Source of the DNA: Chloroflexota bacterium
GTDB lineage: Bacteria > Chloroflexota > Anaerolineae > Promineifilales > Promineifilaceae
Length of the DNA stretch: 59,325 nucleotides
Assembly: GCA_022616275.1 (NCBI GenBank)
Contig: JAKEFB010000235.1
Location: forward strand, 1-59,325
Direction: 5' to 3'
Under the pieces are notes generated by a model that had not been told where the DNA came from, ran no database searches, and saw nothing but the letters and a program-made list of their open reading frames with translations. The number at the start of each line of letters is the position of its first letter. Within the stretch, counting starts at the first letter, position 1. Below are positions 8,330 through 54,821 of the stretch, in pieces. The position numbers were made by a program, and so were the translations under genes.

Positions 8330-8462
8330 GCGAGTCTGCAAGTCTGCGAGTCTGCGAGTTTGCAAGTGTGCAAGTGACCTGCCACCTCCCACCTGCCACT
8401 TGCCTACTTGCAAACTTGTCCCCTTCCCCCTCAGTCCTCAGTCCTCAGTCCTCAGTCCTCAG
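8330..8462. repeat. Tandem-repeat block with long hairpin between two permease genes
   Basis: The block has three parts. Octamers of the form GCRAGTYT run from 8331 to 8376. A near-perfect 20-base inverted repeat pairs 8357-8376 with 8397-8416 (two mismatches). Finally there are 4.7 copies of the heptamer CTCAGTC at 8430-8462. The repeats start right after the stop codon at 8329 and end before the ribosome binding site of the next gene (GGAGG at 8475-8479). They may act as an mRNA hairpin between two cistrons. Confidence 0.8.
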
Positions 8463-13841: not shown

Positions 13842-13886
13842 GCAAGTTTGCAAGTAGGCAAGTCTGCGAGCAGGCAAGTCTGTAAG
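13841..13886. repeat. Octamer tandem repeat (GCAAGTNN-like)
   Basis: About five degenerate copies of an eight-base unit (GGCAAGTT, TGCAAGTA, GGCAAGTC, TGCGAGCA, GGCAAGTC) follow directly on the stop codon of the binding lipoprotein. It is the same family as the block at 8331-8376. Confidence 0.8.
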
Positions 13887-40760: not shown

Positions 40761-43418
40761 ATGAGTGCGACAGACGAACCATTGCCAATCACTGACCCGG
40801 GCGACAGGGACGTTACCTGGCAAGGAAGTGAAGAACGGTATCGCGCCGTCCTCGAAAATATCCAGGATGGTTACTACGAAGTAGACCTGGGCGGCCACTA
40901 TACGTTCTTCAACGAGGCCCTATGTGACATCTTCGGCTACAGCCGGGAAGAGCTGCTGGGCATGAGTTACAAACAAAGGGTAGACGAGGCCACGGCCGAA
41001 GATATGTACCGTTGTTTCAACCAGGTCTATAAGACGGGTGCGGCAGTTAAAAGCTACGAATACCAATTCACTCACGGGGATGGAAGCCAGCGAACCATTC
41101 AAATTTCGGTCGCTCCCATCCGGGATAGGGACAACAACGTGGTGGGGTTCCGGGGTCTGGGCCGCGACGTTACGGAAAGCAAGCTGGCCCAGTTGGCGCT
41201 GCTGGCCAGTGAGGAACGCTACCGTCTTTTGCTTGAACAGCGCCGGCGTGAAATCCGGCTGGCCGCACAGGTGGCCCAGGAAATTGCCACTGCGGCCAAC
41301 CTGAATGAGTTGTACAAACGGGTAGTGACCCAGGTGAAGGAACAATTCGGTTATTACCACGCCCAATTGCTACGCTATGACCCGGCCATTGATGCCGTGG
41401 TCCTCATTGCCGGCTACGGTGAGACAGGGGCCAGGATGCTGGCGGCTGGCCACAAGGCTCCAATGCGGACCGGTCTAATCGGCGTGGCCGCCAGCACCGG
41501 CCAGTCGGTGCTGCGGCCAGACGTGGCCGGCGACCCCCAATGGCAATCTAATCCCTTATTGCCCGAGACGCGGGGGGAGCTGGCCGTACCGATCAAGCTG
41601 GGGGAGCAGGTCCTGGGGGTACTGGACGTACAAAGCGACACGGCCGGGGCGTTGACGGCCGACGACCAACTGGCGCTGGAAGGTCTGTGCGGCCAGATTG
41701 CCGTGGCCATTGAAAGTACCCGGTTACGCCAGGAAATGGCCGACCGCCTCCGCGAATTGGACCAGCTCCATCGCATTTTGAGCCGCGAAGGGTGGCAATC
41801 TTTCCGGGCCACTCACGCCAAAAGCGCCCAGGGTTATCTGTTTGACCGTGCCTCAGTCCAGCCAGTGGGCTCAGAGGAGCAGCCACCCAGTGGCAATGGC
41901 CATTCTCAACCACAAGAGGAGTCAGTACGCTCTGTAGCAGCGGAAAATGCTATTACCACGCCCATGACGGTGCGTGGGGAAGTGATTGGCGCGTTGGGGA
42001 TCGAAGACGACCCGGCTAATCCGCTCTCGCCCGAAGACCAGGAACTGCTGGCTTCTATCTCTGTCCAGGTCGCTGAGGCCTTGGAAGGCGCCCGGCTGTT
42101 GGAACAAATCCAGCGACGTGCTTCGGAGCTAGAAACTGTGGCCCGGGTGAGTGCAGTCGCTTCGACCATTTTGGACGCGTCCAGGCTGTTGCAAACAGTA
42201 GTAGATCTGACGAAGGAACGGTTCGACCTCTATCACGTTTCTATTTTCTTGTTTAACGAAGAAGATCTGCGCCTGGAACTGGCGGCCGGCAGCGGCGAAA
42301 TCGGCAAGTTGATCCAGATAGAAAATCCGGTCCTGCCCTTGCATCTGCCCAAGTCCATTATTTCCCGGGCCGGGCGAACCCGGCAGGCCATCGTCGTGAA
42401 CGATGTACGCGCAGCCCCAGACTATATGGAACACCCCTTGCTATCGCAAACACGCTCGGAGTTGGCCATTCCTCTTGTTGTCGGCGACCAACTCCTTGGC
42501 GTGTTGGATGTGCAATCAGAGATGATCAACCGCTTTACTGAGGACGACGTACGGGTCCAAAGCACGCTGGCGGCCCAGGTAGCCGTTGCCCTGCAAAATG
42601 CTTATCTGTACGCCGAACAGTTGGCCGCGGCCGAGCGGCTGCGCGAGGTAGACCGGCTTAAGTCGGAGTTCCTGGCCAGCATGAGCCACGAACTGCGTAC
42701 GCCGCTCAACTCCATTATCGGCTTTGCCGACGTGATCCTGGAAGGCATTGACGGCCCCTTGACTGAACGGATGGAAGAGGACGTTACCCTGATTCGCGAC
42801 AGCGGCCGCCATTTGCGGGAGCTGATCGGCCACATTCTGGATATGTCTAAAATTGAAGCCGGCATGATGGAGCTGCGTTACGAACAGGTCAACGTGCAGC
42901 AGGTGGCCCGGGAAATTATTGCCAACGCCCGATCGCTGGCGTTGGATAAAGATATTACAGTCCGGCTAGAAATTGATCCGGATGTGGAAACCGTGGAAGC
43001 CGACCGCACCCGGTTGACGCAGGTGTTGTTCAACCTGATCAGCAACGCTATCAAATTCACCGAAAAAGGCTCGGTCACCCTGGTCATCGGCCAGAAAAAT
43101 GACCAGTTGTTGGTGTCAGTAATAGATACGGGTATTGGCATCCGCAAAGAGGACGTTCCTATTATCTTTGAACAGTTCCGCCAGATTGACGGTAGCCTTA
43201 CCCGCCGGCATGGCGGCACAGGGCTGGGACTACCTATTAGTAGAAGCTTGGTGGAATTGCACGGCGGAGAAATGTGGGTGGAAAGCGAGCCGGACATCGG
43301 CAGCACTTTCTCGTTTTCTATTCCAGTGCAAAAAGCGGCTAAGAAAGGGGATACCGGCCCCCTGGCCCGTAGAGGGCATACCGGCCCGCTTCGCCCCCTA
43401 CCCGGCCAGTCTCACTAA
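40761..43418 (+). CDS. Soluble hybrid-free sensor histidine kinase: PAS-GAF-GAF-like-GAF-HisKA-HATPase
   Basis: This 885-residue cytoplasmic kinase has a PAS domain at about residues 22-145 (with GYYEVDLGGHYTFFNEALC). GAF domains lie at about 170-325 and 465-620, with a divergent GAF-like segment (340-455) of the type also seen in the giant protein. HisKA has MSHELRTPLNSIIGF with the phospho-acceptor His643. The ATPase has N-box LFNLISNAIKF near 757, G1 DTGIGI near 789 and G2 GGTGLGL near 818. It is the only kinase in the seven-gene cluster. It has no membrane segment and probably receives signals from the membrane GAF proteins. It starts one base after the giant gene and hands phosphate to the receiver encoded next. 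Confidence 0.93.
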   Translation: MSATDEPLPITDPGDRDVTWQGSEERYRAVLENIQDGYYEVDLGGHYTFFNEALCDIFGYSREELLGMSYKQRVDEATAEDMYRCFNQVYKTGAAVKSYEYQFTHGDGSQRTIQISVAPIRDRDNNVVGFRGLGRDVTESKLAQLALLASEERYRLLLEQRRREIRLAAQVAQEIATAANLNELYKRVVTQVKEQFGYYHAQLLRYDPAIDAVVLIAGYGETGARMLAAGHKAPMRTGLIGVAASTGQSVLRPDVAGDPQWQSNPLLPETRGELAVPIKLGEQVLGVLDVQSDTAGALTADDQLALEGLCGQIAVAIESTRLRQEMADRLRELDQLHRILSREGWQSFRATHAKSAQGYLFDRASVQPVGSEEQPPSGNGHSQPQEESVRSVAAENAITTPMTVRGEVIGALGIEDDPANPLSPEDQELLASISVQVAEALEGARLLEQIQRRASELETVARVSAVASTILDASRLLQTVVDLTKERFDLYHVSIFLFNEEDLRLELAAGSGEIGKLIQIENPVLPLHLPKSIISRAGRTRQAIVVNDVRAAPDYMEHPLLSQTRSELAIPLVVGDQLLGVLDVQSEMINRFTEDDVRVQSTLAAQVAVALQNAYLYAEQLAAAERLREVDRLKSEFLASMSHELRTPLNSIIGFADVILEGIDGPLTERMEEDVTLIRDSGRHLRELIGHILDMSKIEAGMMELRYEQVNVQQVAREIIANARSLALDKDITVRLEIDPDVETVEADRTRLTQVLFNLISNAIKFTEKGSVTLVIGQKNDQLLVSVIDTGIGIRKEDVPIIFEQFRQIDGSLTRRHGGTGLGLPISRSLVELHGGEMWVESEPDIGSTFSFSIPVQKAAKKGDTGPLARRGHTGPLRPLPGQSH

Positions 43419-43439
43419 AGTCGTGAATAAATGGTAGCT

Positions 43440-43820
43440 ATGGCCAAAAAAGTTCTTGCGATTGAAGACAACACAACTAACATGGTCCTGATCTCTCGGA
43501 TCGTCGAAGCCGAGGGCCTTAAACTGCTGCAAGCCGAGGATGGACCAGGCGCGCTAGAACTATTATCCAGAGAAGTACCGGACCTCATTCTGCTGGATAT
43601 TAATATACCCGGTATCAACGGCCTTGACTTGGCCCGCCAGATTAAAGCAGACAACCGGCTGGCCCACATTCCACTCATTGCCACGACGGCCAACGTGCTG
43701 CTGGGCGATCGGGAGCGATGCCTGGAGGCCGGCTGTGACGATTACATGCCCAAACCCCTCGACATCCGCAAGCTGCGGGAGCTGATGCGGGATTACCTGA
43801 GCGGTACGAAGCAGATTTAG
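43440..43820 (+). CDS. Single-domain response regulator (DivK/CheY-like)
   Basis: This 126-residue stand-alone receiver carries the acidic pair in LAIEDN and the phospho-Asp in LILLDINIPGINGLDL. It has the conserved Thr in LIATTAN and the Lys in YMPKPL. There is no DNA-binding or enzymatic output domain. It is DivK-like in its TTNMVLISRI helix. Two ATGs are possible (43431 and 43440); I use the second, giving the usual MAKKVLAIEDN start. Neither has a strong Shine-Dalgarno. It follows the kinase and closes the operon at a strong hairpin. It probably passes phosphate to, or interacts with, a target outside the window. Confidence 0.92.
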   Translation: MAKKVLAIEDNTTNMVLISRIVEAEGLKLLQAEDGPGALELLSREVPDLILLDINIPGINGLDLARQIKADNRLAHIPLIATTANVLLGDRERCLEAGCDDYMPKPLDIRKLRELMRDYLSGTKQI

Positions 43821-43827
43821 TCAGCAA

Positions 43828-43880
43828 AACCCCCGCAGGTCTTTAGAGCACGATAGTTTGTGCCCCGACCTGCGGGGGTT
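43828..43880. terminator. Bidirectional terminator-like hairpin between convergent operons
   Basis: The arms AACCCCCGCAGGTC (43828-43841) and GACCTGCGGGGGTT (43867-43880) are perfect 14-base complements around a 25-base loop. It separates the receiver gene from the convergent methyltransferase gene that ends at 43885. There is no long T-run on either side. Confidence 0.75.
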
Positions 43881-43884
43881 CGTG

Positions 43885-45063
43885 TCAGGGTTTATAATCC
43901 CGGCCGATTAAGACGGTGGCTTCCCCCTGAACGTGTGTCAAAAAGATAACCCGGTGCTCGTCTCCTTGCAGGCGCAACCGTTGTCGTAGCTCGTCGGGGT
44001 CAAGTGGCGAGCCACGTTTCTTGATCGTCACCTGGCCTACGTGGCGCTGCTGCAAGTAGTGACGCAGCCGCTTCAACTGGAAAGGGAAAGCATCTTCCAG
44101 GGCGTAGCAGCGGGCAAAAACCGTCTCCTGGGGAGCACCGGCCGTCAGGTAAGCAATATCCTCGTCAATCTTGGTGGCGCCCAACCGCCCGGCCAGTTGC
44201 TCGACCAGGTGGGCGCGAATGACGGCGCCGTCCGGTTCGTAGAGGTAGGCCTGGGGCCGGGTGACGGCCACGTGGCCCACCGGTTCGTCGGCGAGGGTGT
44301 GGCCGCCCGGCAGCAGGGTGGCCCGCCGGCCAGCCCCCGAGCGTAGCTCTCCAAACCACAAAACTCCTTCCCGCACTTCGCCATCCACCGAAATAAACTC
44401 TACTTCTGCTTCGGCCGGCAACTCGGCATACTCTACCCCTGGGCTGATTTTGATGCCCATGTAGGGGACCCACAGCCGCCAGCGGTCCAGAAAGTCCAGG
44501 GGCGGCTGGTAATCGTGGACGGAATAAAAGCGGCGGCCGGCCTCATCCCGCCGGGAGGGGTCGGCAAAAAGGGCCTGTACCGGCAGCGGCGTCAGCTCCA
44601 GCAGGTCGGCCTGCAAGGGGTGAAAGCGCGTTGCCTGGCCGTAAACCCGAACGTTTTCCTGGGCCATGGCCAGCCGCAAGCCATCCCAGTCCACGCCGAT
44701 AACGTCGGCCTGTTCAGCCAGGGCCAGCGAGTCTCCGCCAATGCCGCAGCCCAGGTCGGCAATGCGCCCCAGACCGGCGGCCGCATACCGGCCGGCCCGG
44801 TACCGGGAGATCACTTCGGCCGAGGCCTGCTCCAGGGCCGGCCGGGTGAAATACATCTGGGCGGCGCGGCTAAACTTGGCCGCCGCCAACTGGCGCAGCA
44901 GGGTGGTTTCCAGGATAGCGTGAGCCTTCTCCGGTCCCACCTCCCGGCGCAGACGCTCGGCCAGTGGCAAATGGCTTTCGGAGGTCAGGCCGGCGGCCGC
45001 CGTTTCGTCCAGCCCTCGCTGTCCTTCTTCACTGAGCAGAAAATAAAATTCGTCTAATCCCAC
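43885..45063 (-). CDS. Class I SAM-dependent methyltransferase with THUMP-like domain
   Basis: This 392-residue protein has an N-terminal helical part (residues 1-95) and a Rossmann methyltransferase core, with motif I DLGCGIGGDS at about 103-112, VDWDGLR, and ADPSRRDEAGRR near 168-178. A C-terminal THUMP-like domain contains LYEPDGAVIRAHLVEQLAGR and RHVGQVTIKKRG. THUMP-like methyltransferases are thought to act on RNA, but the target is not known; related Chloroflexota proteins are usually listed only as 'THUMP-like domain-containing'. It is downstream, on the same strand, of the nuclease gene by 48 bases, so it may be the last gene of the CHAT/RT run or a housekeeping neighbour. Confidence 0.85.
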   Translation of the reverse strand: MGLDEFYFLLSEEGQRGLDETAAAGLTSESHLPLAERLRREVGPEKAHAILETTLLRQLAAAKFSRAAQMYFTRPALEQASAEVISRYRAGRYAAAGLGRIADLGCGIGGDSLALAEQADVIGVDWDGLRLAMAQENVRVYGQATRFHPLQADLLELTPLPVQALFADPSRRDEAGRRFYSVHDYQPPLDFLDRWRLWVPYMGIKISPGVEYAELPAEAEVEFISVDGEVREGVLWFGELRSGAGRRATLLPGGHTLADEPVGHVAVTRPQAYLYEPDGAVIRAHLVEQLAGRLGATKIDEDIAYLTAGAPQETVFARCYALEDAFPFQLKRLRHYLQQRHVGQVTIKKRGSPLDPDELRQRLRLQGDEHRVIFLTHVQGEATVLIGRDYKP

Positions 45064-45111
45064 GCAGATTTGGCTGTCTTGATGTGACAGCCCCTTTCTG
45101 GCACCACCCGC

Positions 45112-45891
45112 TCAGGGTATCTCTGGCTCCAGTTCAAGGGATGTCTCGTCTAGCTCCCAGGCGTTCCAATCCTGCCCGGCCGCCTCCCGGCCGCAGTAGA
45201 CCTGGTAGGCGCAGCGGGCGCATTCGGCCAGGTCGTTCGTCAGTGGCCACGGTTCCAGAACTTCCAGTTGCCGGTCAATTTGGGCGACCAATTCCTGGAG
45301 TGCGGTCCAGTTCTCCTGGTGGGCGGCCGGGCTATAGCCGATGGTGGCGGCCGCTTCGGGGGCGTGGACGTACCAGTAGGTGAGGCTAATTTGCTCCGGG
45401 GCAATGGCCTGGCCAAGGGCCACCCCACCCTCGGCCAGCAGGGCCAGGTAGAGACGGGTCTGTAAATCCTGCTCTAGTTCGGCCAACGGGCGCGGCCGGC
45501 TCTCCGTTTTCCAGTCAAAAATGTGGGCGCCGGCCTCACCCAACACCAGCAGGTCAAAGCGGCCGGTCAACAGGTGGCGGCCGATGGGCATGGTCAGGCT
45601 TGACTCGGGAAACAACCGGCCGGGCGGCAGTTGCGGTCCCTGGTCTACAAACCGCTCCCACCAGGCGCGCAACGCCGGCTCGGCTGCGGCCTCGCCGGCC
45701 ACCGGCAGCCCCAGGAAGTGGCGGTGCAGCAGTTGGTGAAAGCGCTCGCCCAGGGAGCGGGCCTGCTCGACCGGCTCGTCCAGCGGCGCCACCGGCCAGG
45801 GTAGTCGTTCCAGGTAACGCAGTTGAAAGCGCCGCCGGCAGGCCAGGAAGTCGGCCAATTTAACGCGGCTGAATTGAATCGTTTCATTCAT
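45112..45891 (-). CDS. PD-(D/E)XK nuclease with Cas4/AddB-like four-cysteine iron-sulfur motif
   Basis: This 259-residue protein has the RecB/Cas4-like nuclease core: His52 in GERFHQLLH, Asp113 in GRFDLLVL and Asp126-Trp-Lys128 in IFDWKTE. A Cys at 18 and C-X2-C-X5-C at 224-233 give the four ligands of the iron-sulfur cluster known from Cas4 and AddB. It should cut DNA ends or trim single strands. A GTG at 45906 would add five residues, but the ATG at 45891 is preferred; no strong ribosome site is visible for either. It lies 61 bases after the reverse transcriptase gene, across a heptamer repeat. No other cas genes are present, so a CRISPR role is unlikely. Confidence 0.85.
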   Translation of the reverse strand: MNETIQFSRVKLADFLACRRRFQLRYLERLPWPVAPLDEPVEQARSLGERFHQLLHRHFLGLPVAGEAAAEPALRAWWERFVDQGPQLPPGRLFPESSLTMPIGRHLLTGRFDLLVLGEAGAHIFDWKTESRPRPLAELEQDLQTRLYLALLAEGGVALGQAIAPEQISLTYWYVHAPEAAATIGYSPAAHQENWTALQELVAQIDRQLEVLEPWPLTNDLAECARCAYQVYCGREAAGQDWNAWELDETSLELEPEIP

Positions 45892-45899
45892 AGGAAGAA

Positions 45900-45920
45900 G
45901 TGTCACGTGTCAGGTGCCAG
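45900..45920. repeat. Three heptamers GTGTCAC/GTGTCAG/GTGCCAG
   Basis: Three consecutive seven-base units of one degenerate family lie in the short spacer between the reverse transcriptase and nuclease genes. A weak hairpin (TTTGGC/GCCAAA at 45923-45937) follows. Confidence 0.7.
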
Positions 45921-45952
45921 ACTTTGGCAAGGCCAAAATCCTGTCAAGTGCT

Positions 45953-48229
45953 TTAGCCAACTTGCCGGCGGCGTTCCAGGATGAGTTGGAGCGGAACAAG
46001 CTCTGTAACCAAAAAGCGGAAAGAACCAAATCGTTCCAGGATTTGCGGTCCATAAGTATAAAGAATCCAAAGCCAGTATTTGCCGAGCTGATTCTGCTGC
46101 TTGCCGCTCATTTGCGCTCCTCGCTGAATAAAGTCTTTCACCAGGGCAGCCATCATTTTCGTTTCCCTGGGAGCGACCGGTTGCAGGGGTTCCAGCCAAT
46201 AGTGGTAAAACCATGCCCATTCATTGATCTTCCTCTGCCACCCCTCTTCAGGCAGAGTAGACGGTTTACTTCGTCGCTCTTGTTGATGAGCTTGAGCATA
46301 GCTGGCGACCTCTATCCAGGGATTGACCAGACCCAGTCCACCGGCCGTAAGCGGCCAGTAGAACCAGGCTTCGGGTAATTCCATATCCACGTCAAGCCCC
46401 GACAATTTCGACCAGATCATTTCATCCAACAGCGCCACGATGCTGCGGCCGTTGGCAAAGTGATCGTGAAACCGGGCCATGGCCTCGTTGATGCTCTGGC
46501 GGTGCTGGTTGCCGAGTCGTACGTTAAGGGCCAACCCATTCAGCAACTCCCGCAGGTGATTGTTATAAGCTTCGACGCTGGCCATGAGGGATGAGGCCCG
46601 GAAAACCTCTTCGCGGGCATTGGCCAGGTGGATATCCAATGCAGCCTGATCAACTTGCCACTCACCATCTGGCCGAAGTTGCAAGAATTTCCACGCGGGC
46701 AGGCGAGAGGGAAACCCCTCAGGCAGGTTACTGTCCAGGCAAACTGCGCCGGATTTGCGTTCGTTAATCTCTAACCCTGTGGCTCCACAGAACGTCTGCA
46801 GCGCCTGCCACGCCGTTCGCGCGTGGGCTGCCTTGGCAGCCAGAATACAGATGTCATCTACCACTCGAATAATCTGGACAGGCGCTTGTTGATAAACGTA
46901 ATGCTCTAACTGGACGAGTAGCGTTTCACCCAGTATATGAGAAAGGAGACGATCATTAGCTAGGCCTCGCCGGGCGACAATTATGTCGTCGCCAAGCTGC
47001 ATCCGAACCGCTGTGATTTCCTCGACAATGCGCCTGTCTTCTTCCAGGACGCCGCCAGTTTCAAGAATAGTACGTAGCACCTCGTGGGAAATAGATGAAT
47101 AAAAATCTTTGAGATCAGCCTTGAGAATGTAGCGCGGTTGTCCTGGAAAGGCGGAGCGCCAGAGCTGGGCTTCGGCGTTCACCAACCGCACCACTAACTC
47201 TGTGCCACCGCTGTATCCCGCCTGCGTATAATCCACTCCCCAGATAGCGTCCCTGAGTTCCTGGTGCGCCAGTCCGCGTTTTTCCCGGATTGCAATTCCC
47301 TTGGAGGTCCCCTCTTCCATAGACCATGTCTCTTGAAAGGCGCCTTCTGAAGTCCATGAAATACCTCTGAACCCACCTGTCTCCGGCGGTTGTTCCCCGG
47401 CCAGATAGGGGTACTTCATCATCCATCTGTCACCTACTACTTCTAGCAGAACGGCGGTTGGCAAATCTTCATCGAGGAACAATCGCCACCTTCCACCGAC
47501 TCGCGTGGTCATAAGGGGAACCCCGGCCGCTGGCCAGCGCCAATCCTCCAGACTGTCCAGGAGAATGGTGAGGGCATCGGAGAATTCATTCAACAGAATT
47601 GGATCTTCGAGGAAACGACCGGCCTGTTGCCGCAGAGGGGCTGGACGGTAGATATTGTCACGGATACGTTCCAGGTTTCGTTCTAAGTAGCCGGTATCCA
47701 TTCTGCGCTTGAGGTTACTCCCTCGTGACCCTTCGGCCACCTTTGCCATTGGCGCGAGCAGGGGAGCGAGGAAGGCCTGGTGGCCAGGAACCGATTTGAG
47801 TTCTCGCAGTTGATCCAGGATTTGCTGCCTGGCTACAATCTGTTCGGAACTGGCTGGCGGAGGGAGCGCTTCAGCCCATTCAACCAGGAGAGCGCCAAAG
47901 ATATAGACAAAGTCTGCCCGTGATCGGCCAGTTTCAAGCTCATTTTCGAGTTGCCGGAGCCAAAATTGCAGAAACCCTTCGGCAACGATCTCTGAACTAT
48001 CTAGCTGGTAGAGAATGACATCTAAATTTGCCACATTAGGGTGGAGGGGTTGTTCAGCGAATTTGAGATCTTGTATCCCCTTGTACAACCGGCGAAGGCG
48101 GGTAGCCGTGTCCTTCGCGGCTGCAACCTGCTCCTCAAGCTGGTGATACGCTTCCAGCAAACGCTCCCGTTGGCGGCGCAACTCCTGGAGCTTCATGCGT
48201 GTAATAAACTGCTCAACGTCCGTAAACAT
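45953..48229 (-). CDS. Unusual reverse transcriptase (UG/Abi-like) with long N-terminal domain
   Basis: This 758-residue protein has a coiled and helical N-terminal region of about 350 residues with no recognised domain, then a reverse transcriptase core. Motif A is YILKADLKDFYSSIS (catalytic Asp372), motif B is RGLANDRLLSHILGE (421-435), motif C is RVVDDICIL (Asp458-Asp459), motif D is TGLEINERKSGAV and the following thumb element is FLQLRPDGEW. In motif C the usual Tyr/Phe is Val (VVDD, not YADD). About 200 helical residues follow. The layout resembles the 'unknown group' and Abi-type RTs linked to phage defence rather than retrons, DGRs or group II introns. It starts one base after the CHAT stop, with GGAGG inside the CHAT gene, so the two are translationally coupled. 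Confidence 0.85.
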   Translation of the reverse strand: MFTDVEQFITRMKLQELRRQRERLLEAYHQLEEQVAAAKDTATRLRRLYKGIQDLKFAEQPLHPNVANLDVILYQLDSSEIVAEGFLQFWLRQLENELETGRSRADFVYIFGALLVEWAEALPPPASSEQIVARQQILDQLRELKSVPGHQAFLAPLLAPMAKVAEGSRGSNLKRRMDTGYLERNLERIRDNIYRPAPLRQQAGRFLEDPILLNEFSDALTILLDSLEDWRWPAAGVPLMTTRVGGRWRLFLDEDLPTAVLLEVVGDRWMMKYPYLAGEQPPETGGFRGISWTSEGAFQETWSMEEGTSKGIAIREKRGLAHQELRDAIWGVDYTQAGYSGGTELVVRLVNAEAQLWRSAFPGQPRYILKADLKDFYSSISHEVLRTILETGGVLEEDRRIVEEITAVRMQLGDDIIVARRGLANDRLLSHILGETLLVQLEHYVYQQAPVQIIRVVDDICILAAKAAHARTAWQALQTFCGATGLEINERKSGAVCLDSNLPEGFPSRLPAWKFLQLRPDGEWQVDQAALDIHLANAREEVFRASSLMASVEAYNNHLRELLNGLALNVRLGNQHRQSINEAMARFHDHFANGRSIVALLDEMIWSKLSGLDVDMELPEAWFYWPLTAGGLGLVNPWIEVASYAQAHQQERRSKPSTLPEEGWQRKINEWAWFYHYWLEPLQPVAPRETKMMAALVKDFIQRGAQMSGKQQNQLGKYWLWILYTYGPQILERFGSFRFLVTELVPLQLILERRRQVG

Positions 48230-48230
48230 A

Positions 48231-50447
48231 TTAACCTCCGAAGAGGGTTGGGGCCATTTGTATAGCTTTTTGTATCAGGGGTAGCAACTTGCTGGCGGCC
48301 GCGACGGCGCCGCCGGCCGCCCCGGCGATCTTGGTCACGCTTTCGAGCTTGCGCACCAGGCGGGCGCCATCCGGTTCTGTTTGAGCAGCCTCGTCCTGGG
48401 CATCGGCCAGTTCTTCAGCCGCATCTTCGGCGTCTCTCGGCCGCAACGACTGGCGGATAGCCTCAAATTCGCTGCGAATGTCTTGCAGCAGTTGGTCAAA
48501 ATCCTCCCTGGTCGGGCCGGCCGCCGGGCCAACCGTAACGTCGCCAGTGACGTCTTTGACCTGAGTACCCACCACGGCGTCGCCGGTGAGGCTGACGGCG
48601 CTGCCGCCGGAAACACCAGAGATATTGACACCCTTGATAATATCCCGGCCGGCCTTATCGCCGGCCACTTTATCACCACCTACCTTATCGCCGCCCACCT
48701 TGTCGCCTTGAATTTCGTCACCCATTGTTTGTCGCTCCACGTAATCACCATAATAATTGTACTGATAAATGACAGTGCCGGCCACGCCCTGGCCTTTTTG
48801 GCCGGTGGCCGGCGCCGGCGTGGCCACCAGCCTGTCTGGCGGCTGCCAGAGGTAGCCGTCTTGGGCACGCATGAACAGCACCGGGATGCCCCAGTAAATT
48901 TTGTCGTCCTTACTGCTAAAAGCGCTCTTGCGAGCCTCAGTCAGAGCTGCATCAAGAGGAAAGCCAACAGACAGGTAGTAATACAGGTCATGAATAAGGG
49001 CCAGGGCCGTCTCGTAAGGTACTTTGAATTGCATGGCAACGACGGCCGGCACACCCGCTTCGACCAGGGATGGGGCCATACCCATAAAAGCCTCTCCCTC
49101 GTCGTGCTCGGCCGTCTGGCAGGCGGTCAGAACCACTGCCTTGACGCCACTATTACGAAGTAAGACTCTCATTTGCTCGGCGTCTACCAGGTGTTTGCCG
49201 TTTTGTGGGCCGCCCGGCCGCTCCAGGGCCAGCGCCCCCTGGCCATCCTCTTTGATAACCCCGTGGCCAACGTAGTGAAGCAACTGGTAGCCAGCAGCCA
49301 GTTCGCGCTGTAGCGCCTCCAGAGTAGTATTCTTCAGCACTTTCCATTGGATGTGGCCGGCTACCGGCGCCAGAGACTTTTCAATAAGCTGGTACTCTTC
49401 GTTTTCGTTCAAAGGAGCCAACTCAGGGTCTTGTGGGCTGGCCAGGGCCACCAGCAGCCGGGGTTGGGGCGTGGCCAGCCGCTCGGCCGGAAGCGACTTG
49501 GCCACGTAACGAACAACGGGTGACAACGAGTTTAAGGCAAAATAGTCATACTCTACCCCGCCATAGCAATATTCCCAGGGCAGGCGGCTGAGTTCCGGCG
49601 GATCTATGCGCAGGCGCAGGCGCAGCCCTTTGCCGTTCCTATCTACCTGGTCCAGGCTGCGCGTAAACAAGTTCCAAACTTCGGCCGGAAAAAGCAGCTC
49701 TCGCAGCCACTTACCAAGGGTCCTGGCGTCCTCCGGCCGGGCCATCAGGCCTTTCAAGTATTGAATAAGCTCGTAAAATTTGGGGTCGTCCAGCGGGAAT
49801 AGCTGCGGAATAAGGCTTCTCGTCTCGCCGGCCGGGGAGTAAAGCACCTCGACGGCGTAACCTTTATCGCCCCAGTGGGCCAAACGGATGTCAAAATTTT
49901 CGTATTGCAACGCCTTCTTAGGCTGTTCCACCCTGTCAATGGAGTGCTGTGTCTGAGGGGCGTCGGATCTATCTTCCTGCCTCGGTCGGTCCAGGCGAAA
50001 AACGGCCAGGGCGAGTTTCGGCTTCAGCCGTTGCAGTTCGGCCAGCAGTTCCTCCCACCGGCCGGCCTGGCGCATCTGCTCCTGCAAGGTCCAGGCTTTG
50101 TTGCGCTTGATGAAATCGTCGTAATCCCAGCCCAGCAGCCCATCGGCGTCCAGGCCCAGGTTCAGCTTATCTACCCCCAGGCTGCGGCACAGCGTCGCCA
50201 TCTCTGCTTCGCTGAAAGAGGCGGCAATCAGTTCGTAGAGGTACGGTTGCAAGTCCAATCCCGGCCGGCGGCCACTGACCTTTTGATACAAGGTGTCCAG
50301 CCGCAGGCGACGCCGTGCATCTTCGAAGAGCTGGCGGGCCATGACCGAAGGGTTACCCAGGCTAACGTACACGCCCAGATCGTGCGCCAGCTCCTTAATC
50401 TCTTCCTCGCCAAAATGTTGAGCGATTAAGCGATAAAACTGTTCCAT
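48231..50447 (-). CDS. CHAT-domain caspase-like protease with N-terminal EAD-like repeats and GDK-repeat tail
   Basis: This 738-residue protein has two N-terminal death-fold-like effector-associated modules, about residues 3-60 (FYRLIAQHFGEEEIKELAHD) and 68-140 (LYELIAASFSEAEMATLCRS). A CHAT peptidase spans about 180-540, with the dyad His395 in YVGHGVI and Cys443 in LTACQTAE. From about 578 to 602 comes a run of GDKVGGDK-type repeats, then a Gly/Val-rich low-complexity region and an acidic helical tail. CHAT enzymes are caspase relatives that are activated inside multi-protein switches and cleave partners. Here EAD-like modules probably recruit another EAD protein. It lies between the unknown protein and the reverse transcriptase, five bases and one base away. 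Confidence 0.88.
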   Translation of the reverse strand: MEQFYRLIAQHFGEEEIKELAHDLGVYVSLGNPSVMARQLFEDARRRLRLDTLYQKVSGRRPGLDLQPYLYELIAASFSEAEMATLCRSLGVDKLNLGLDADGLLGWDYDDFIKRNKAWTLQEQMRQAGRWEELLAELQRLKPKLALAVFRLDRPRQEDRSDAPQTQHSIDRVEQPKKALQYENFDIRLAHWGDKGYAVEVLYSPAGETRSLIPQLFPLDDPKFYELIQYLKGLMARPEDARTLGKWLRELLFPAEVWNLFTRSLDQVDRNGKGLRLRLRIDPPELSRLPWEYCYGGVEYDYFALNSLSPVVRYVAKSLPAERLATPQPRLLVALASPQDPELAPLNENEEYQLIEKSLAPVAGHIQWKVLKNTTLEALQRELAAGYQLLHYVGHGVIKEDGQGALALERPGGPQNGKHLVDAEQMRVLLRNSGVKAVVLTACQTAEHDEGEAFMGMAPSLVEAGVPAVVAMQFKVPYETALALIHDLYYYLSVGFPLDAALTEARKSAFSSKDDKIYWGIPVLFMRAQDGYLWQPPDRLVATPAPATGQKGQGVAGTVIYQYNYYGDYVERQTMGDEIQGDKVGGDKVGGDKVAGDKAGRDIIKGVNISGVSGGSAVSLTGDAVVGTQVKDVTGDVTVGPAAGPTREDFDQLLQDIRSEFEAIRQSLRPRDAEDAAEELADAQDEAAQTEPDGARLVRKLESVTKIAGAAGGAVAAASKLLPLIQKAIQMAPTLFGG

Positions 50448-50452
50448 CTGCC

Positions 50453-51670
50453 CTATCCCAAACGCACGTCGCTGCTGGCCAACAGCGGGTCGTGCTCCAC
50501 TTTAAATAGGGTCGGCACGTGGGCCTGCCAGCCTTTGGCCAGCACCACGCGGTCCGTACCCATTGCTTCCCGCCGGACCAGGTCTTCGGCCAGCCGCTCC
50601 ACGTAGCCTCGCGGATTGTACGGTAGCTTGTGTTTGGACTGGCCGGCGATTTTCTTGCCCACGTGCTCAAAGCCCACTTTCAGGAAAGAGCCAAGAGTAA
50701 AGCCATAGCGCGCGTTGAGGGGCATCTCTACCACCTGGCCCCAGACCTCCTGCCAGTGGAAATCGGTGCAGGCCAGAACGACCTTGCCGCTCTTTTTGCG
50801 GATCAGGAAGTCAAAGCGCTCGGCGTCGGGCACTTCGTGGCGGACCTGCTCGCTGAACTTGAAGCCAATGTTCGTGTTGAGCCAGAAGAACCAGATACGT
50901 AAGACAAAGTGATCCTGATCAAAATTAAACAGTTCAAAGTCAACGCTGCTGGGCGCGTACTTTTCTATGCCTGGAGATAGCAGAGATGGGGAAGTATTGT
51001 CGGTGATAATGATGGCCGGGTTTCCCTGGCCGGGCCATTCGACCAGGAGGCGGTTGTTGTCCTGGCGGATAGATAAGGACGGGGCTGTTACCTGTTGGTA
51101 GGTGACTTCGGCCGCCGGCCACCAGCGGGCGTCGTAATCGGCCAGGTAGTCGCCGGCCGCCTGCCACCAGCCGGCCCCGGCCGGCGCCAGGCGCACGACC
51201 CCGGCCGGCAGGTCGGCCGGCTTTTGCAGTGTGACCGGCAGGCTGGCGTACATGTGGCCGTTGGCCGGAGCGTAGGCTTCCAGGGTGACGGCAGCCATTT
51301 CCGGCAATTCGTCACCCTGGTGTTTGACGTTCAGGTAAATGGTGCTGGGCACGCCAGCCTTGAGGCTGACGCACTCTTCGGCGTGGCCGCCCTGGTCGTC
51401 GGCCTTGAGGCAGGGGCCTTCTTCGTGGCCGCCACCCCAACTGACCAGGAAGGCCTCGCCCTCATCGGCGTAGCCGCAGGTCATGCCCGTAGCCTGGGCG
51501 TCGGCCATGCGGCGTGTCCGCAGCCGCAGCGGCGGCAGATTTTCTTTGTCCGGCGTGGTCGAAACTTTCACTTTCAGGGTGCGGGTGCTCCACGGCCGGT
51601 AGACCAGGCTGGCCCCCGGCTGGCCCACGCCCTGGTCCAGCCGGAGGTGAACGGCTGCTTCATTACTCAT
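50453..51670 (-). CDS. Unknown protein, first gene of the CHAT/reverse transcriptase operon
   Basis: The family is not recognised. The 405-residue product starts MSNEAAVHLRLDQGVG. It has beta-rich sections and Trp-rich stretches: AGWWQAAGDYLADYDARWWP (about residues 168-187) and FNFDQDHFVLRIWFFW (about 250-270). The C-terminal part is rich in charged and aromatic residues (KKSGKVVLACTDFHWQEVWG). I see no signal peptide, membrane helix or catalytic motif. The frame is open to 51820, but ATG 51670 is preceded by GGGAGT and lies behind a -10 promoter, so the upstream 50 codons are unlikely to be translated. It ends five bases before the CHAT ATG, tightly coupled, so it is probably an obligate component such as a sensor or switch. 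Confidence 0.75.
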   Translation of the reverse strand: MSNEAAVHLRLDQGVGQPGASLVYRPWSTRTLKVKVSTTPDKENLPPLRLRTRRMADAQATGMTCGYADEGEAFLVSWGGGHEEGPCLKADDQGGHAEECVSLKAGVPSTIYLNVKHQGDELPEMAAVTLEAYAPANGHMYASLPVTLQKPADLPAGVVRLAPAGAGWWQAAGDYLADYDARWWPAAEVTYQQVTAPSLSIRQDNNRLLVEWPGQGNPAIIITDNTSPSLLSPGIEKYAPSSVDFELFNFDQDHFVLRIWFFWLNTNIGFKFSEQVRHEVPDAERFDFLIRKKSGKVVLACTDFHWQEVWGQVVEMPLNARYGFTLGSFLKVGFEHVGKKIAGQSKHKLPYNPRGYVERLAEDLVRREAMGTDRVVLAKGWQAHVPTLFKVEHDPLLASSDVRLG

Positions 51671-51720
51671 CATTACTCCCGATGCAAAGCGCTCGACGTA
51701 TTTTCCACGTACGCCCTGGC

Positions 51721-51729
51721 AGTATAACA
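51721..51729 (-). promoter_or_regulatory. Extended -10 promoter candidate (TGTTATACT) for the CHAT/RT operon
   Basis: On the minus strand, TG plus one base precedes TATACT, giving a predicted transcript start near 51714 and a leader of about 44 bases before the ATG at 51670. Confidence 0.45.
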
Positions 51730-51856
51730 CAAATCGCTTTTCAGCAGGAAAATGGCCCTTAGAGGTCATTGCAGAAACCGGCCGAATGGCGACAATAGTA
51801 GGCAGGTATAGGGCTGACAATGGGGAGGTTACGCCCTACTCCTCAAGGAGTGTGTC

Positions 51857-52663
51857 ATGTCGGGTTATCGCACAAAAATATCAGCCTGGTGGCTGTGGTC
51901 GGCAGTGCTGCTGGTTTTGTTCTTGCCAGCCTGTCGGAACAGAGACGAGAACAACGAAAATGACGGCGAAGGGACGGAAGTGGCCATCAACGCCCAAACA
52001 CCGGCCGGCCCAACCGCGCGCCCGTCCGGCACAGCCAGGCCCGGGACGGGCAATGGAACGCCGGCCGGTAGCGGGCGGCCGACGCCGACGCTCCGGCCGA
52101 CTGGAGAATCGCCCCAACCGGCCGCGACGGCGGGAGACCTCCAGGTGCGGGTGATTTTTAGCTCCATCAACGTGCGCAACGGCCCCGGCACGGACCAGAG
52201 GTCAATTGCCTACTTGTACGAAGACGACGTCGTCGAGGTCCTGGAGGTCAGCGACAATGAAGAGTGGTACCGGGTCCGGCTGGAAGATGGAACCAGGGGC
52301 TGGGTGGCCGCCAGCGTCGTCGAGACAGTAGGGCCCACCCCGGCCGCCACCCAGGCACGGCCGCCCGACCCGGACAATATCCAGCTCCGCGTCGTTCCGT
52401 CGAGCGTCAACCTCCGCCAGGGCCCGGGAACGGAGCATCCGATTTGGAGGGTGCTTTTTGCTGGCGATTTAGTGACGGCCATTAGCCGGACGCGCAACAG
52501 TGGCTGGCTCTACGTGGAAACGGCCAGTGGCCACCGCGGTTGGATAGCGGGCGGCGTTCTGAACTTCGTCGGTGAGGCGTCATGGTCAGACATTCCTGTC
52601 GCCCTGGTCGAGCCCACCTCCCCTGCTCCCACGTCCACCCCATCCGCCACCCCGGAAGGATAA
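51857..52663 (+). CDS. SH3b-domain lipoprotein (two SH3b repeats)
   Basis: This 268-residue lipoprotein has a signal peptide with lipobox LFLPAC (Cys26), then a Pro/Thr/Gly-rich linker (about residues 27-92). Two bacterial SH3b domains follow, at about 95-155 (INVRNGPGTDQRSIAYLYED) and about 175-235 (VNLRQGPGTEHPIWRVLFAG). SH3b domains of this type bind peptidoglycan or cell-surface ligands, so the protein is probably attached to the cell envelope. AAGGAG lies seven bases before the ATG. It is divergent to the CHAT/RT operon and shows no sign of belonging to it. It ends in a Pro/Ser/Thr tail, followed by heptamer repeats. Confidence 0.85.
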   Translation: MSGYRTKISAWWLWSAVLLVLFLPACRNRDENNENDGEGTEVAINAQTPAGPTARPSGTARPGTGNGTPAGSGRPTPTLRPTGESPQPAATAGDLQVRVIFSSINVRNGPGTDQRSIAYLYEDDVVEVLEVSDNEEWYRVRLEDGTRGWVAASVVETVGPTPAATQARPPDPDNIQLRVVPSSVNLRQGPGTEHPIWRVLFAGDLVTAISRTRNSGWLYVETASGHRGWIAGGVLNFVGEASWSDIPVALVEPTSPAPTSTPSATPEG

Positions 52664-52783
52664 ATCTAAAATCTAAAATCCCGGCCGTTCCTTCCGAGAA
52701 CTCGGAACCTCATTCCCTCCTTTCGGAACAGAATCATAGTAAAATTCCAGCAACTGGCAGCTTACGGCTGATAGCTAATAGCT
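52662..52783. repeat. Two heptamer repeat families in one spacer
   Basis: AAAATCT units (52662-52680, overlapping the stop codon) and GCTTACG/GCTGATA/GCTAATA units (52760-52783) flank a spacer between two plus-strand genes. The first is the same family as at 20458-20611. The second is related to a pair at 11516-11529. Confidence 0.7.
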
Positions 52784-52802
52784 TTAGGAAGCGGAAGGAA
52801 AA

Positions 52803-54821
52803 ATGAAGCAACAAAAATTAGTGATCATTCTAATACTTTTGGCAGCCCTGTTCACGGCAGCCAGCAGTTGGGCGGCGCCGGCCGCCGAGGAGCCGGCCGG
52901 ACTGCAAACCAAACAAATCGCCGCCCCACCGGAAGAATTCCTCAGCGGCCAGCTACAGCTTCCCGACCCGGCCGCCAGCGGCATTCGCTCGACCTCGGCT
53001 ATGCTGCCTGTCCACCTGGCGGCCACGGGCGGCGCGTGGACCTGGTCGGGTGAGGCAGCGGTAGACGCCACCGAGAACGTGTCGCTGATGGTCTTTGCTC
53101 CCCAGGCGGCCGGCTGGCAGGTGACGGTGACACTGCCTGGCGGCCGCCAGATAGATCTGGCCGGCGGCGCTACAGCCGCCGGGGTACGCCAGCGAGCCTC
53201 TGACCTGGGTCTGGGTGAGAACCGCTATCCGGGCACGGTCTATACCTTTGCCCGCCCGGCTAGTGGTGTCTGGCAAATCCAGGTGACGGCCGGTGGGCCG
53301 CGCCAGGGCCTAACCGGCCCGGACGGCTACCTGTTGCTGTCAGGCAAAAGCCCTTACCACCTCTTTACCCACCTGAGCAGCCACGAATTGCTGGCCGGCC
53401 GGCAGCTAGGGCTGGTGACTTACCTCACTTACGAGCCGCTGGGGAGTGGCCAGGGGGTCCCGGCGCCGCTAACCGGCCACATCCGCTCGGCCGAGATGCG
53501 TCTGGTGGCTCCAGATGGCACGGAACAGTCGCTGCCGATGTTTGACGACGGCCAGCACGCCGACGGCCCGGCCGGCGACGGCGTCTTTGGCGGCCTGGTG
53601 GAAGCAGCGCTGGCCGGCCAGTACACAGCCCAGGTTACCGTGCAAGGCGAAACGCCCGCTGGCCTGGCCTTCCTGCGCACTACCGAGCACGTCTTCCCGG
53701 TCATTGAGCCGGCTCTGACCCTGGCGGCCGGCCAGATGGCGACGGCCGCGGCGGCCGACGATACCCGCTTACGGATTGAGCTGGCCGCCCTGCCGGCGGC
53801 CGGCGAAACTGGCGGCAACGTGCAACTCTTTGCCGAGCTATGGGGAACCGATGGCAATGGCGAGGCCACGCCGGTAGCCTGGGTGGGCGGCATCGTCCGG
53901 CCGGAGGAAGGCCCGGCCGGGCTGGTCCTACCCCTCATACTCGACGGCCGGTGGATTGCCCTGGCCGGAGCCGGAGCGCCGTTTGAGCTGCGCCAGGTGC
54001 GCGTCCACGACCTGCAGACTCACGTGCCTCTGGCCCTGGCGGCCAATATCCCCCTGGAAGTCAGCAGCCTGCCGGCGGCGGCCGGCCGGGCGGTGACGGA
54101 GGTCACGGAAGAAATGCTGATGGGCGGCCGGCCGGCGGCCGGGCCAGGTGGGCGCGATCCCCAGGTTGACCGGCGATTGATGCTCGTCCACGGCTACTGC
54201 TCCGGGGGCGTCTGGCCAACGGCCGATTTTACGCAATACGCCGTTTTCCAGGATTTCAACCAGAACCGCACCCACGACCAGTTTGCCCAGTTGATTGGCA
54301 GCTACGGCGACCAGTTCGACTCTTTTGGCGTGGTGGCCCACAGCCAGGGTGGGGCGGCGTCGCTGCACCTCTACACCTATTACTGGAGCGGCCTGGACTA
54401 CTCTTCTGGCTCGCGGCTGATCCAGTCGGTGGGCACTCCCTACCGGGGCACCTCCCTGGCCGGCAACCTGGCCCTGCTGGGCCAGATCTTCGGCATCGGC
54501 TGCGGCACTAACTGGGACCTGACCTACGACGGCGCAGCCCTATGGCTGTCGGGCATTCCCTCCTGGGCCCGCAGCCGGGTGTACTACTTCACTACGTCGT
54601 TTACCGACCTCTGGTACCGTTACGATTACTGCCACCTGGGCAGCGACCTGTTCCTCAGCGACCCCGACGACGGGGCGACCGAACGCTGGGCCGGCCAGCT
54701 CTCCGGGGCCAACAACATGGGCCACAAGACAGGCTGGTGCCACACGACCGGCATGCGCGATCCGGCCCAGTACAATGACTACAACCGGAACGCCAACATG
54801 AACACCTACGCCAACCGGTAG
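52803..54821 (+). CDS. Secreted alpha/beta hydrolase (lipase-like) with N-terminal beta-rich domains
   Basis: This 672-residue exported protein has a signal peptide (about residues 1-24, ending SSWAAPA). Residues 30-430 are beta-sandwich-like and Gly/Ala-rich, including a segment reading MFDDGQHADGPAGDGVFGG, typical of choice-of-anchor or big-domain repeats. The C-terminal part (about 445-672) is an alpha/beta hydrolase. It has the oxyanion region LMLVHGYCSGG and the nucleophile Ser514 in VVAHSQGGAA, where the usual first Gly is Ala. A later His in MGHKTGWCHTTG is a candidate catalytic residue. It may act on lipids or esters at the cell surface. It starts 139 bases after the SH3b gene and shares its strand. 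Confidence 0.8.
   Translation: MKQQKLVIILILLAALFTAASSWAAPAAEEPAGLQTKQIAAPPEEFLSGQLQLPDPAASGIRSTSAMLPVHLAATGGAWTWSGEAAVDATENVSLMVFAPQAAGWQVTVTLPGGRQIDLAGGATAAGVRQRASDLGLGENRYPGTVYTFARPASGVWQIQVTAGGPRQGLTGPDGYLLLSGKSPYHLFTHLSSHELLAGRQLGLVTYLTYEPLGSGQGVPAPLTGHIRSAEMRLVAPDGTEQSLPMFDDGQHADGPAGDGVFGGLVEAALAGQYTAQVTVQGETPAGLAFLRTTEHVFPVIEPALTLAAGQMATAAAADDTRLRIELAALPAAGETGGNVQLFAELWGTDGNGEATPVAWVGGIVRPEEGPAGLVLPLILDGRWIALAGAGAPFELRQVRVHDLQTHVPLALAANIPLEVSSLPAAAGRAVTEVTEEMLMGGRPAAGPGGRDPQVDRRLMLVHGYCSGGVWPTADFTQYAVFQDFNQNRTHDQFAQLIGSYGDQFDSFGVVAHSQGGAASLHLYTYYWSGLDYSSGSRLIQSVGTPYRGTSLAGNLALLGQIFGIGCGTNWDLTYDGAALWLSGIPSWARSRVYYFTTSFTDLWYRYDYCHLGSDLFLSDPDDGATERWAGQLSGANNMGHKTGWCHTTGMRDPAQYNDYNRNANMNTYANR

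What the first reader, a model, noticed from the sequence alone, without database searches (positions are those of the whole stretch)
45953..51670. CHAT protease, reverse transcriptase and an unknown protein in one tightly coupled operon: candidate undescribed conflict system
Seen: three minus-strand genes with gaps of five and one bases (unknown protein, EAD-like/CHAT protein with His395/Cys443, reverse transcriptase with motifs A-D). The RT ribosome site lies inside the CHAT gene. Known: EAD and CHAT proteins occur in bacterial NTPase-switch conflict systems, and UG/Abi-type RTs defend against phage. Inference: the RT, or the DNA it makes, may act as sensor or trigger for the CHAT protease, with the first protein as the missing switch or target. 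I do not know this exact trio as a named system.
Basis: partly seen in the sequence, partly recalled or inferred. Interest (0 to 1): 0.93.

Follow-up and report, generated by a model that had tools for sequence, protein, structure and literature searches.

The report
Protease pair plus inserted reverse transcriptase
The three neighbouring genes are real, but only two of them (a caspase-like CHAT protease and an undescribed partner protein) were found together in related bacteria; the reverse transcriptase, a known but unstudied type, was found next to them only in this genome, so a three-gene defence system is not supported.

Summary
In detail: three minus-strand genes 5 and 1 bases apart, the ribosome site of the reverse transcriptase (RT) lying inside the end of CHAT. 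The RT belongs to UG37, a known UG/Abi group (PADLOC, E 3e-221). None of 22 other UG37 loci (19 near-complete, 3 fragments) has CHAT or the unknown protein ("UP") in the held flank. None of 34 relatives' copies of this site shows an RT (one has no upstream sequence). Of 53 family genomes, many incomplete, only this one has a UG37-level match. RT composition is atypical, by a narrow margin. What recurs is the pair: UP stands directly before an EAD-CHAT protease here and in 4 of the 34. UP also occurs fused to a clostripain protease, before a TPR and a CHAT-NACHT gene, and beside a KAP-NTPase-EAD7 gene. I read UP as an undescribed partner of caspase-fold proteases in an EAD-type conflict system, with a UG37 RT inserted later and translationally coupled. 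A functional RT-CHAT link in this genome is not excluded; I think it unlikely.

The parts
50453..51673 (-). UP: 406-aa protein of a family I did not find described; partner of clan-CD (caspase-fold) proteases
   Evidence: No match at E<=1 in Pfam, PADLOC, NCBIfam and none with a profile against PDB sequences. Homologues directly before CHAT in L134, L136, L158, L159; fused to Peptidase_C11 in L193.
48231..50447 (-). EAD7-CHAT protease, 738 aa, with C-terminal tail
   Evidence: EAD7 E 1.6e-12, CHAT E 2.7e-32; His395/Cys443 invariant in six aligned proteins.
48231..48842 (-). C-terminal tail of the CHAT protein (residues 536-738): GDK repeats and DUF5955-like stretch
   Evidence: Absent from the five relatives aligned; partial matches at five other places in the own genome.
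45953..48229 (-). UG37 reverse transcriptase, 758 aa, lineage-specific insertion between CHAT and the nuclease gene
   Evidence: PADLOC RT_UG37 E 3.4e-221; catalytic D372, D458, D459 invariant; atypical composition; not seen in 34 corresponding loci.
48234..48239 (-). GGAGGT ribosome-binding site of the RT inside the end of the CHAT gene (translational coupling inferred)
   Evidence: Read directly from the sequence.
45112..45906 (-). PD-(D/E)XK nuclease gene, next gene downstream; CHAT adjoins it directly in 16 of 34 relatives
   Evidence: PDDEXK_1 E 1.3e-29; anchor of the comparison.

Best explanation
Shown: the cluster contains a recurrent two-gene module (UP followed by an EAD-CHAT protease) at a variable site before a nuclease gene. 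A UG37 RT gene lies between CHAT and the nuclease gene in this genome only, among those examined, with its ribosome site inside CHAT. Inferred: the RT was inserted there after the module; the module is a conflict-system effector unit. The EAD7 domains, and perhaps the GDK/DUF5955-like tail, dock the CHAT protease onto an NTPase hub encoded elsewhere in the genome (such as the 1473-aa EAD7-EAD7-tail-AAA protein). When the hub is triggered, the CHAT protease is activated. UP is its dedicated partner, a regulator or first substrate that gates the protease. The UG37 RT is an independent, normally stand-alone DNA-synthesising enzyme, probably defensive, that gains co-expression from this position.
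For: UP directly before CHAT in 4 of 34 relatives (three genera) plus the window, gaps 26-199 bp in the four; CHAT before the nuclease gene in 17 of 34; RT in 0 of 34. 12 UP genes in all: 5 next to CHAT, 1 followed by a TPR and a CHAT-NACHT gene, 1 fused in one 905-aa frame to Peptidase_C11 (E 4e-48), 1 divergent from a KAP-NTPase-EAD7 gene, 1 at a contig edge, 3 without CHAT in the held sequence. RT: UG37 E 3e-221; 0 of 22 other UG37 loci with CHAT or UP; 1 of 53 family genomes; GGCCGG/CCGGCC 4 in 2277 bp against a minimum of 5 and median of 13 in 525 overlapping windows, tetranucleotide distance reached by 0.6% of windows. EAD7: 24 matches in the genome, 23 over the cut-off; EAD7-tail-AAA protein.
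Against: 3 of 12 UP genes have no CHAT in the held sequence, and 13 of the 17 CHAT genes at the site show no UP before them (one of these, L094, starts at a contig end), so neither strictly needs the other. The four UP-CHAT pairs of relatives come from one family and may be one inherited event; independent support rests on single cases (UP2 locus, C11 fusion, KAP-EAD7 neighbour). The composition argument is modest: the margin is one motif, and the short ABC-ATPase gene of the window has an even lower motif density (1.3 against 1.8 per kb). The UP fold is unknown (single-sequence model pLDDT 36). Tight coupling of RT to CHAT could mean function. No experiment.
Confidence: 0.66

Rival explanations
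1. The trio is a genuine, young three-part system: the RT (or the DNA it makes on infection) triggers the CHAT protease, with UP as regulator or target.
For: 1-base gap and RT ribosome site inside CHAT; UG/Abi RTs are described as defence enzymes coupled to effectors (PMC13174585 introduction), and nuclease-protease pairs occur in rare DRT variants (PMC12799240 passages); a TIR-beta-helix gene lies 77 bp before another UG37 RT (L040), so effectors may be exchangeable.
Against: 0 of 22 other UG37 loci with CHAT or UP in the held flank; 0 of 34 corresponding loci with RT; atypical composition of the RT; several genes near other UG37 RTs look unrelated to defence (HisG, FKBP, enolase-like, sulfotransferase).
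Confidence: 0.12
2. UP and CHAT are unrelated cargo of a variable site and co-occur only because the site attracts accessory genes; the RT is one more such insertion.
For: The site is variable: CHAT frames of very different length (293-1536 aa) or none, a pentapeptide-repeat gene between CHAT and nuclease in L134; 13 of 17 CHAT genes there show no UP.
Against: UP meets proteases or EAD7 also outside this site: UP2 before TPR and CHAT-NACHT in L068, C11 fusion in L193, KAP-EAD7 neighbour in L192.
Confidence: 0.14
3. The CHAT protease and the following PD-(D/E)XK nuclease form a protease-activated nuclease pair, like caspase-nuclease (canu) loci, with the RT as an interruption.
For: CHAT directly before the nuclease in 16 of 34 relatives, five with overlapping ends; nuclease-protease pairs are a known defence theme (PMC12799240 passages).
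Against: 16 of 34 loci have the nuclease gene and upstream sequence but no CHAT, and the methyltransferase gene follows it in 23 of 34; it is of the PD-(D/E)XK kind, not the MBL-fold kind of the paper.
Confidence: 0.08

Closest known systems
UG37 reverse transcriptases (UG/Abi family; PADLOC RT_UG37)
   Same: Profile match over nearly the whole length, catalytic aspartates, long helical N-terminal extension.
   Different: Here directly after a CHAT gene; elsewhere beside other genes. A linker segment is shorter than in most aligned members (profile positions 270-333 unmatched; alignment).
EAD-effector conflict systems (Kaur et al. 2020, 2021; PMC7159879, PMC8195603, passages seen)
   Same: EAD7 plus a caspase-superfamily (CHAT) protease; another EAD7 protein with an AAA domain in the same genome.
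   Different: No NTPase among the three genes; an additional UP family; tail module added to CHAT.
Trypco1/2 (trypsin-co-occurring domains, PMC7159879 passage)
   Same: A protein that recurs beside a protease gene.
   Different: UP accompanies caspase-fold (CHAT, clostripain) proteases, not trypsins; no relation tested.
Nuclease-protease pairs and canu (PMC12799240, passages seen)
   Same: Protease gene, unknown gene and nuclease gene close together; rare DRT variants carry nuclease-protease pairs.
   Different: CHAT instead of trypsin or caspase; PD-(D/E)XK instead of MBL-fold nuclease.
SAVED-CHAT and Craspase (TPR-CHAT) (control mechanism recalled)
   Same: CHAT protease under control of a sensor; PDB 8tl0 ('CHAT domain-containing protein'; SAVED-CHAT by recall) is the only PDB sequence match of the CHAT profile at E<=0.01.
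   Different: No SAVED, TPR or CRISPR part found in the three genes; control would come through EAD7.

Membership tests
UG37 RT | Match to the UG37 profile over its length | tested here: met
   E 3.4e-221, 734 bits; positions 1-269 and 334-774 of 778. The profile also rings weakly in 3 of 14 control genomes, so only UG37-level matches were counted as UG37.
UG37 RT | RT catalytic aspartates | tested here: met
   D372, D458, D459 invariant in 14 proteins
UG37 RT | Phage defence activity | not testable with these tools
   No experiment; I recall no tested UG37 member
Class 1 UG RT (AbiK-like) | C-terminal alpha-Rep/HEAT-like domain | tested here: inconclusive
   C-terminal part is helical in the model; best fold matches are R2 and LINE-1 RTs, and no Abi RT is among the 50 rows shown
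Class 2 UG RT (DRT2/9/10-like) | Noncoding RNA encoded in cis | tested here: inconclusive
   Only 1 base before and 46 bases after the RT gene; no Rfam match at gathering score in 43000-53000; an RNA overlapping genes or in trans is not excluded
EAD-effector conflict system | EAD fused to an effector domain | tested here: met
   EAD7 and CHAT over cut-off
EAD-effector conflict system | Cognate EAD on an NTPase or other core component in the same genome | tested here: met
   24 EAD7 matches; 1473-aa EAD7-EAD7-AAA protein in L202; on another contig, not in the same operon
EAD-effector conflict system | Homotypic EAD binding | not testable with these tools
   Needs a binding assay or complex model
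UP-CHAT-RT trio as a conserved system | Trio recurs in other genomes | tested here: not met
   0 of 22 UG37 loci and 0 of 34 corresponding loci
canu / gated nuclease-protease pair | MBL-fold nuclease beside a caspase | tested here: not met
   Downstream nuclease is PDDEXK_1
Diversity-generating retroelement | Template/variable repeat pair and Avd | not tested
   RT profile places it in UG37; repeats were looked for only in 45700-48600

The most novel reading that the evidence does not exclude
A stand-alone UG37 RT has been captured as the trigger of an EAD7-CHAT protease, giving an RT-gated caspase-like system in which infection-induced DNA synthesis (or the RT itself) activates proteolysis of UP or other targets; UG37 RTs may do so modularly, with CHAT here and a TIR-beta-helix protein in L040.
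Probability: 0.12. Interest if true: 0.85.

Novelty: new variant of a known kind. Interest (0 to 1): 0.42.

Why it matters
The claimed three-part system falls away, but the comparison exposes two testable things. First, a protein family I did not find described recurs with caspase-fold proteases of two kinds (CHAT by gene order, clostripain by fusion), a candidate for a missing regulator or substrate in bacterial caspase-like immunity. Second, the UG37 reverse transcriptases found here, from five phyla (Chloroflexota, Actinomycetota, Planctomycetota, Pseudomonadota, Myxococcota; several are metagenome bins), show no constant partner, which suggests that UG37 works alone and can be assayed as a single gene.

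Tried and rejected
Rejected: (1) RT as part of a conserved trio. (2) UP as an NTPase switch: no Pfam, PADLOC or NCBIfam match at E<=1 for the window protein, none significant for six UP proteins in Pfam (one DUF1287 at E 0.27), none for the UP profile in PDB sequences. (3) RT plus CHAT tail inserted as one block: the tail has the host's GGCCGG richness and the RT does not; the GC3 values printed there for tail and core were computed out of frame and are not used. (4) Insertion-site duplication: the 20-base motif just before the nuclease gene occurs once in the window, and its 14-base core only in two of 193 loci, both copies of the window; no convincing flanking repeats. (5) Mobile-element carriage: no UG37 relative in a pattern-based scan of viral contigs nor by tblastn in plasmids or phages.

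Dropped before counts: the weak UP hit in G213 (E 2e-4 over 67 residues), which gave no UP match when its surroundings were read; the CHAT-profile hit in L192 (E 2e-10), explained by EAD7; RT-core hits of E 6.6e-13 or weaker, of 3.7e-10 or weaker and of 1.8e-10 or weaker, not counted as UG37.

Led nowhere: the single-sequence scan of genome contigs (repeated with an alignment); the literature search for UG37 gave 34 papers, of which the 20 listed are unrelated; 'reverse transcriptase' + 'CHAT protease' + phage gave 2 papers, seen only as a listing; EAD7 gave 11, of which 10 were listed. The defining UG/Abi paper (10.1093/nar/gkac467) is not held, so what it says of UG37 neighbours is unknown to me. 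The UP model is unusable (pLDDT 36). No Abi RT appears among the 50 fold matches shown, which excludes nothing. The UG37 tree does not resolve the window RT.
Full report
Observation. The three genes are present as described: UP 50453-51673, CHAT 48231-50447, RT 45953-48229, all on the minus strand, with gaps of 5 and 1 bases. GGAGGT at 48239-48234 forms the last two sense codons of CHAT and stands before the RT start. The CHAT protein carries EAD7 (E 1.6e-12, two stretches) and CHAT (E 2.7e-32); His395 and Cys443 are at the stated positions and invariant in an alignment of the window protein with five relatives. It ends in a 203-residue tail of GDK repeats and a DUF5955-like stretch (below cut-off, E 0.0002).

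Is the trio conserved? Of 22 other UG37 loci (19 with a near-complete RT, one of them split over two frames, and 3 fragments), none has a CHAT or UP match at E<=0.1, with profiles built from six proteins each, in the held flank (loci of 7-18 kb; L047 has only 103 bases before its RT). The Pfam CHAT search of 21 of these and related genomes, the window's included, is a capped list; in it no CHAT lies within 100 kb of a UG37 RT on the contigs whose numbers I could match, other than in the window. Genes near the other RTs differ: HisG in six genomes of one genus (four identifiable as Herpetosiphon by contig; HisG confirmed by Pfam in one, the same protein start in all six), a leucine-rich-repeat protein, a TIR-beta-helix protein, FKBP, an enolase-like protein, a sulfotransferase; not every neighbour was scanned. 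Of 53 genomes of the window's family, some of them incomplete, only the window's has a UG37-level match; the next best is 3.7e-10.

The site in relatives. The nuclease gene downstream (45112-45906) was found in 35 of 40 family genomes, the own included. I fetched the locus of all 34 others. In 17 of 34 a CHAT gene precedes it on the same strand: 16 with a gap of -10 to 217 bases (one a weak match, L142, E 1e-9), and L134 with a pentapeptide-repeat gene between. In 4 of 34 (L134, L136, L158, L159; three genera) UP precedes that CHAT gene. In none is there an RT. L137 has no sequence before the nuclease gene, several others little, and 16 show no CHAT. The methyltransferase gene follows in 23 of 34, and both ABC-transporter genes lie upstream on the same strand in 11 of 34. 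In G547 the CHAT gene abuts the nuclease gene and the contig ends at its start, while UP stands at the edge of another contig (L094, L188); whether they adjoin is unknown. So the RT looks like an insertion specific to this lineage. Its composition agrees, modestly: 4 GGCCGG/CCGGCC in 2277 bp, fewer than in any of 525 overlapping windows (minimum 5, median 13), and a tetranucleotide distance reached by 0.6% of the windows sampled. Against this, the short ABC-ATPase gene of the window has a lower motif density still (1.3 against 1.8 per kb).

What UP is. It has no match at E<=1 in Pfam, PADLOC or NCBIfam. A six-row alignment finds it in 9 of 298 class genomes (10 genes); with L158 and L159 that makes 12. 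Five stand directly before CHAT (window, L134, L136, L158, L159). UP2, in the window's own genome, stands before a TPR gene and a gene with CHAT, HEAT and a weak NACHT match (L068). One is fused in a single 905-aa frame to Peptidase_C11 (clostripain family, E 4e-48; L193). One, incomplete at a contig end, is divergent from a KAP-NTPase-EAD7 gene (L192). One is at a contig edge (L188). Three have no CHAT in the held sequence (L189, L190, L191). CHAT and clostripain are both caspase-fold (clan CD) proteases (established knowledge), so fusion and gene order point to the same kind of partner.

How it may work. Shown: domain content, gene order, fusion. Inferred: the EAD7 domains connect CHAT with an NTPase hub. 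The genome holds 24 EAD7 matches, and a 1473-aa protein has two EAD7 domains, a stretch like the second half of the CHAT tail (E 1.6e-14) and an AAA domain. The GDK part of the tail also begins TPR proteins with weak AAA/NB-ARC matches (L203). UP would gate CHAT or be its first substrate; the data do not choose between these. The RT has 1 and 46 bases of flanking space, so an RNA template in cis outside genes is unlikely; untemplated or protein-primed synthesis, as reported for Class 1 UG RTs (PMC13174585 introduction), is the simpler guess.

Known or new. The RT is a new member of a known group. EAD-effector systems with caspase-like proteases are a known kind (PMC7159879 and PMC8195603, passages seen). 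The UP family and its protease link I did not find named, within Pfam, NCBIfam, PADLOC and the paper searches. No paper on UG37 RTs was among the 20 of 34 listed, and the word is absent from the held texts of PMC12632851, PMC13174585 and PMC12483538. The defining survey could not be read. Overall: a new variant of a known kind, of moderate interest; the trio claim is not supported, though a young RT-CHAT coupling is not excluded.

Noticed in passing
   Followed up: partly
L202:2306-6727 (own genome, G000:C167): 1473-aa protein with two EAD7 domains, a stretch like the window CHAT tail and an AAA domain; candidate NTPase hub for the CHAT effector.
   Followed up: partly
L034-L039 (six genomes of one genus, four identifiable as Herpetosiphon): UG37 RT lies directly after the same gene (hisG, confirmed in L034) in all six, suggesting long vertical inheritance.
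   Followed up: no
L040:9748-11280: TIR plus beta-helix gene 77 bp before a UG37 RT on the same strand.
   Followed up: partly
[not shown]
   Followed up: partly
L134-L165, L094, L096: The place before the PD-(D/E)XK nuclease gene holds CHAT genes of very different length in 17 of 34 loci.
   Followed up: partly
L203:11795-14410, L203:3250-6990, L204:3290-4051, L205:2800-3306 (own genome): The GDK-repeat part of the CHAT tail recurs at the start of proteins or frames that lie with TPR arrays, two of them with weak AAA/NB-ARC matches.
   Followed up: no
L057:1790-4197 (Ca. Parabeggiatoa): UG37 RT split over two overlapping frames; sequencing error or decay unknown.
   Followed up: no
window 34067-40759: 2230-aa protein with what look like many repeated GAF-like segments (read by eye), next to further sensor-like proteins and a histidine-kinase-like gene.
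   Followed up: no
window 8330-8462 and 13837-13886: Short tandem repeats (7-24 base units, e.g. CCTCAGT and AGTCTGCA) in the ABC-transporter region.
   Followed up: no
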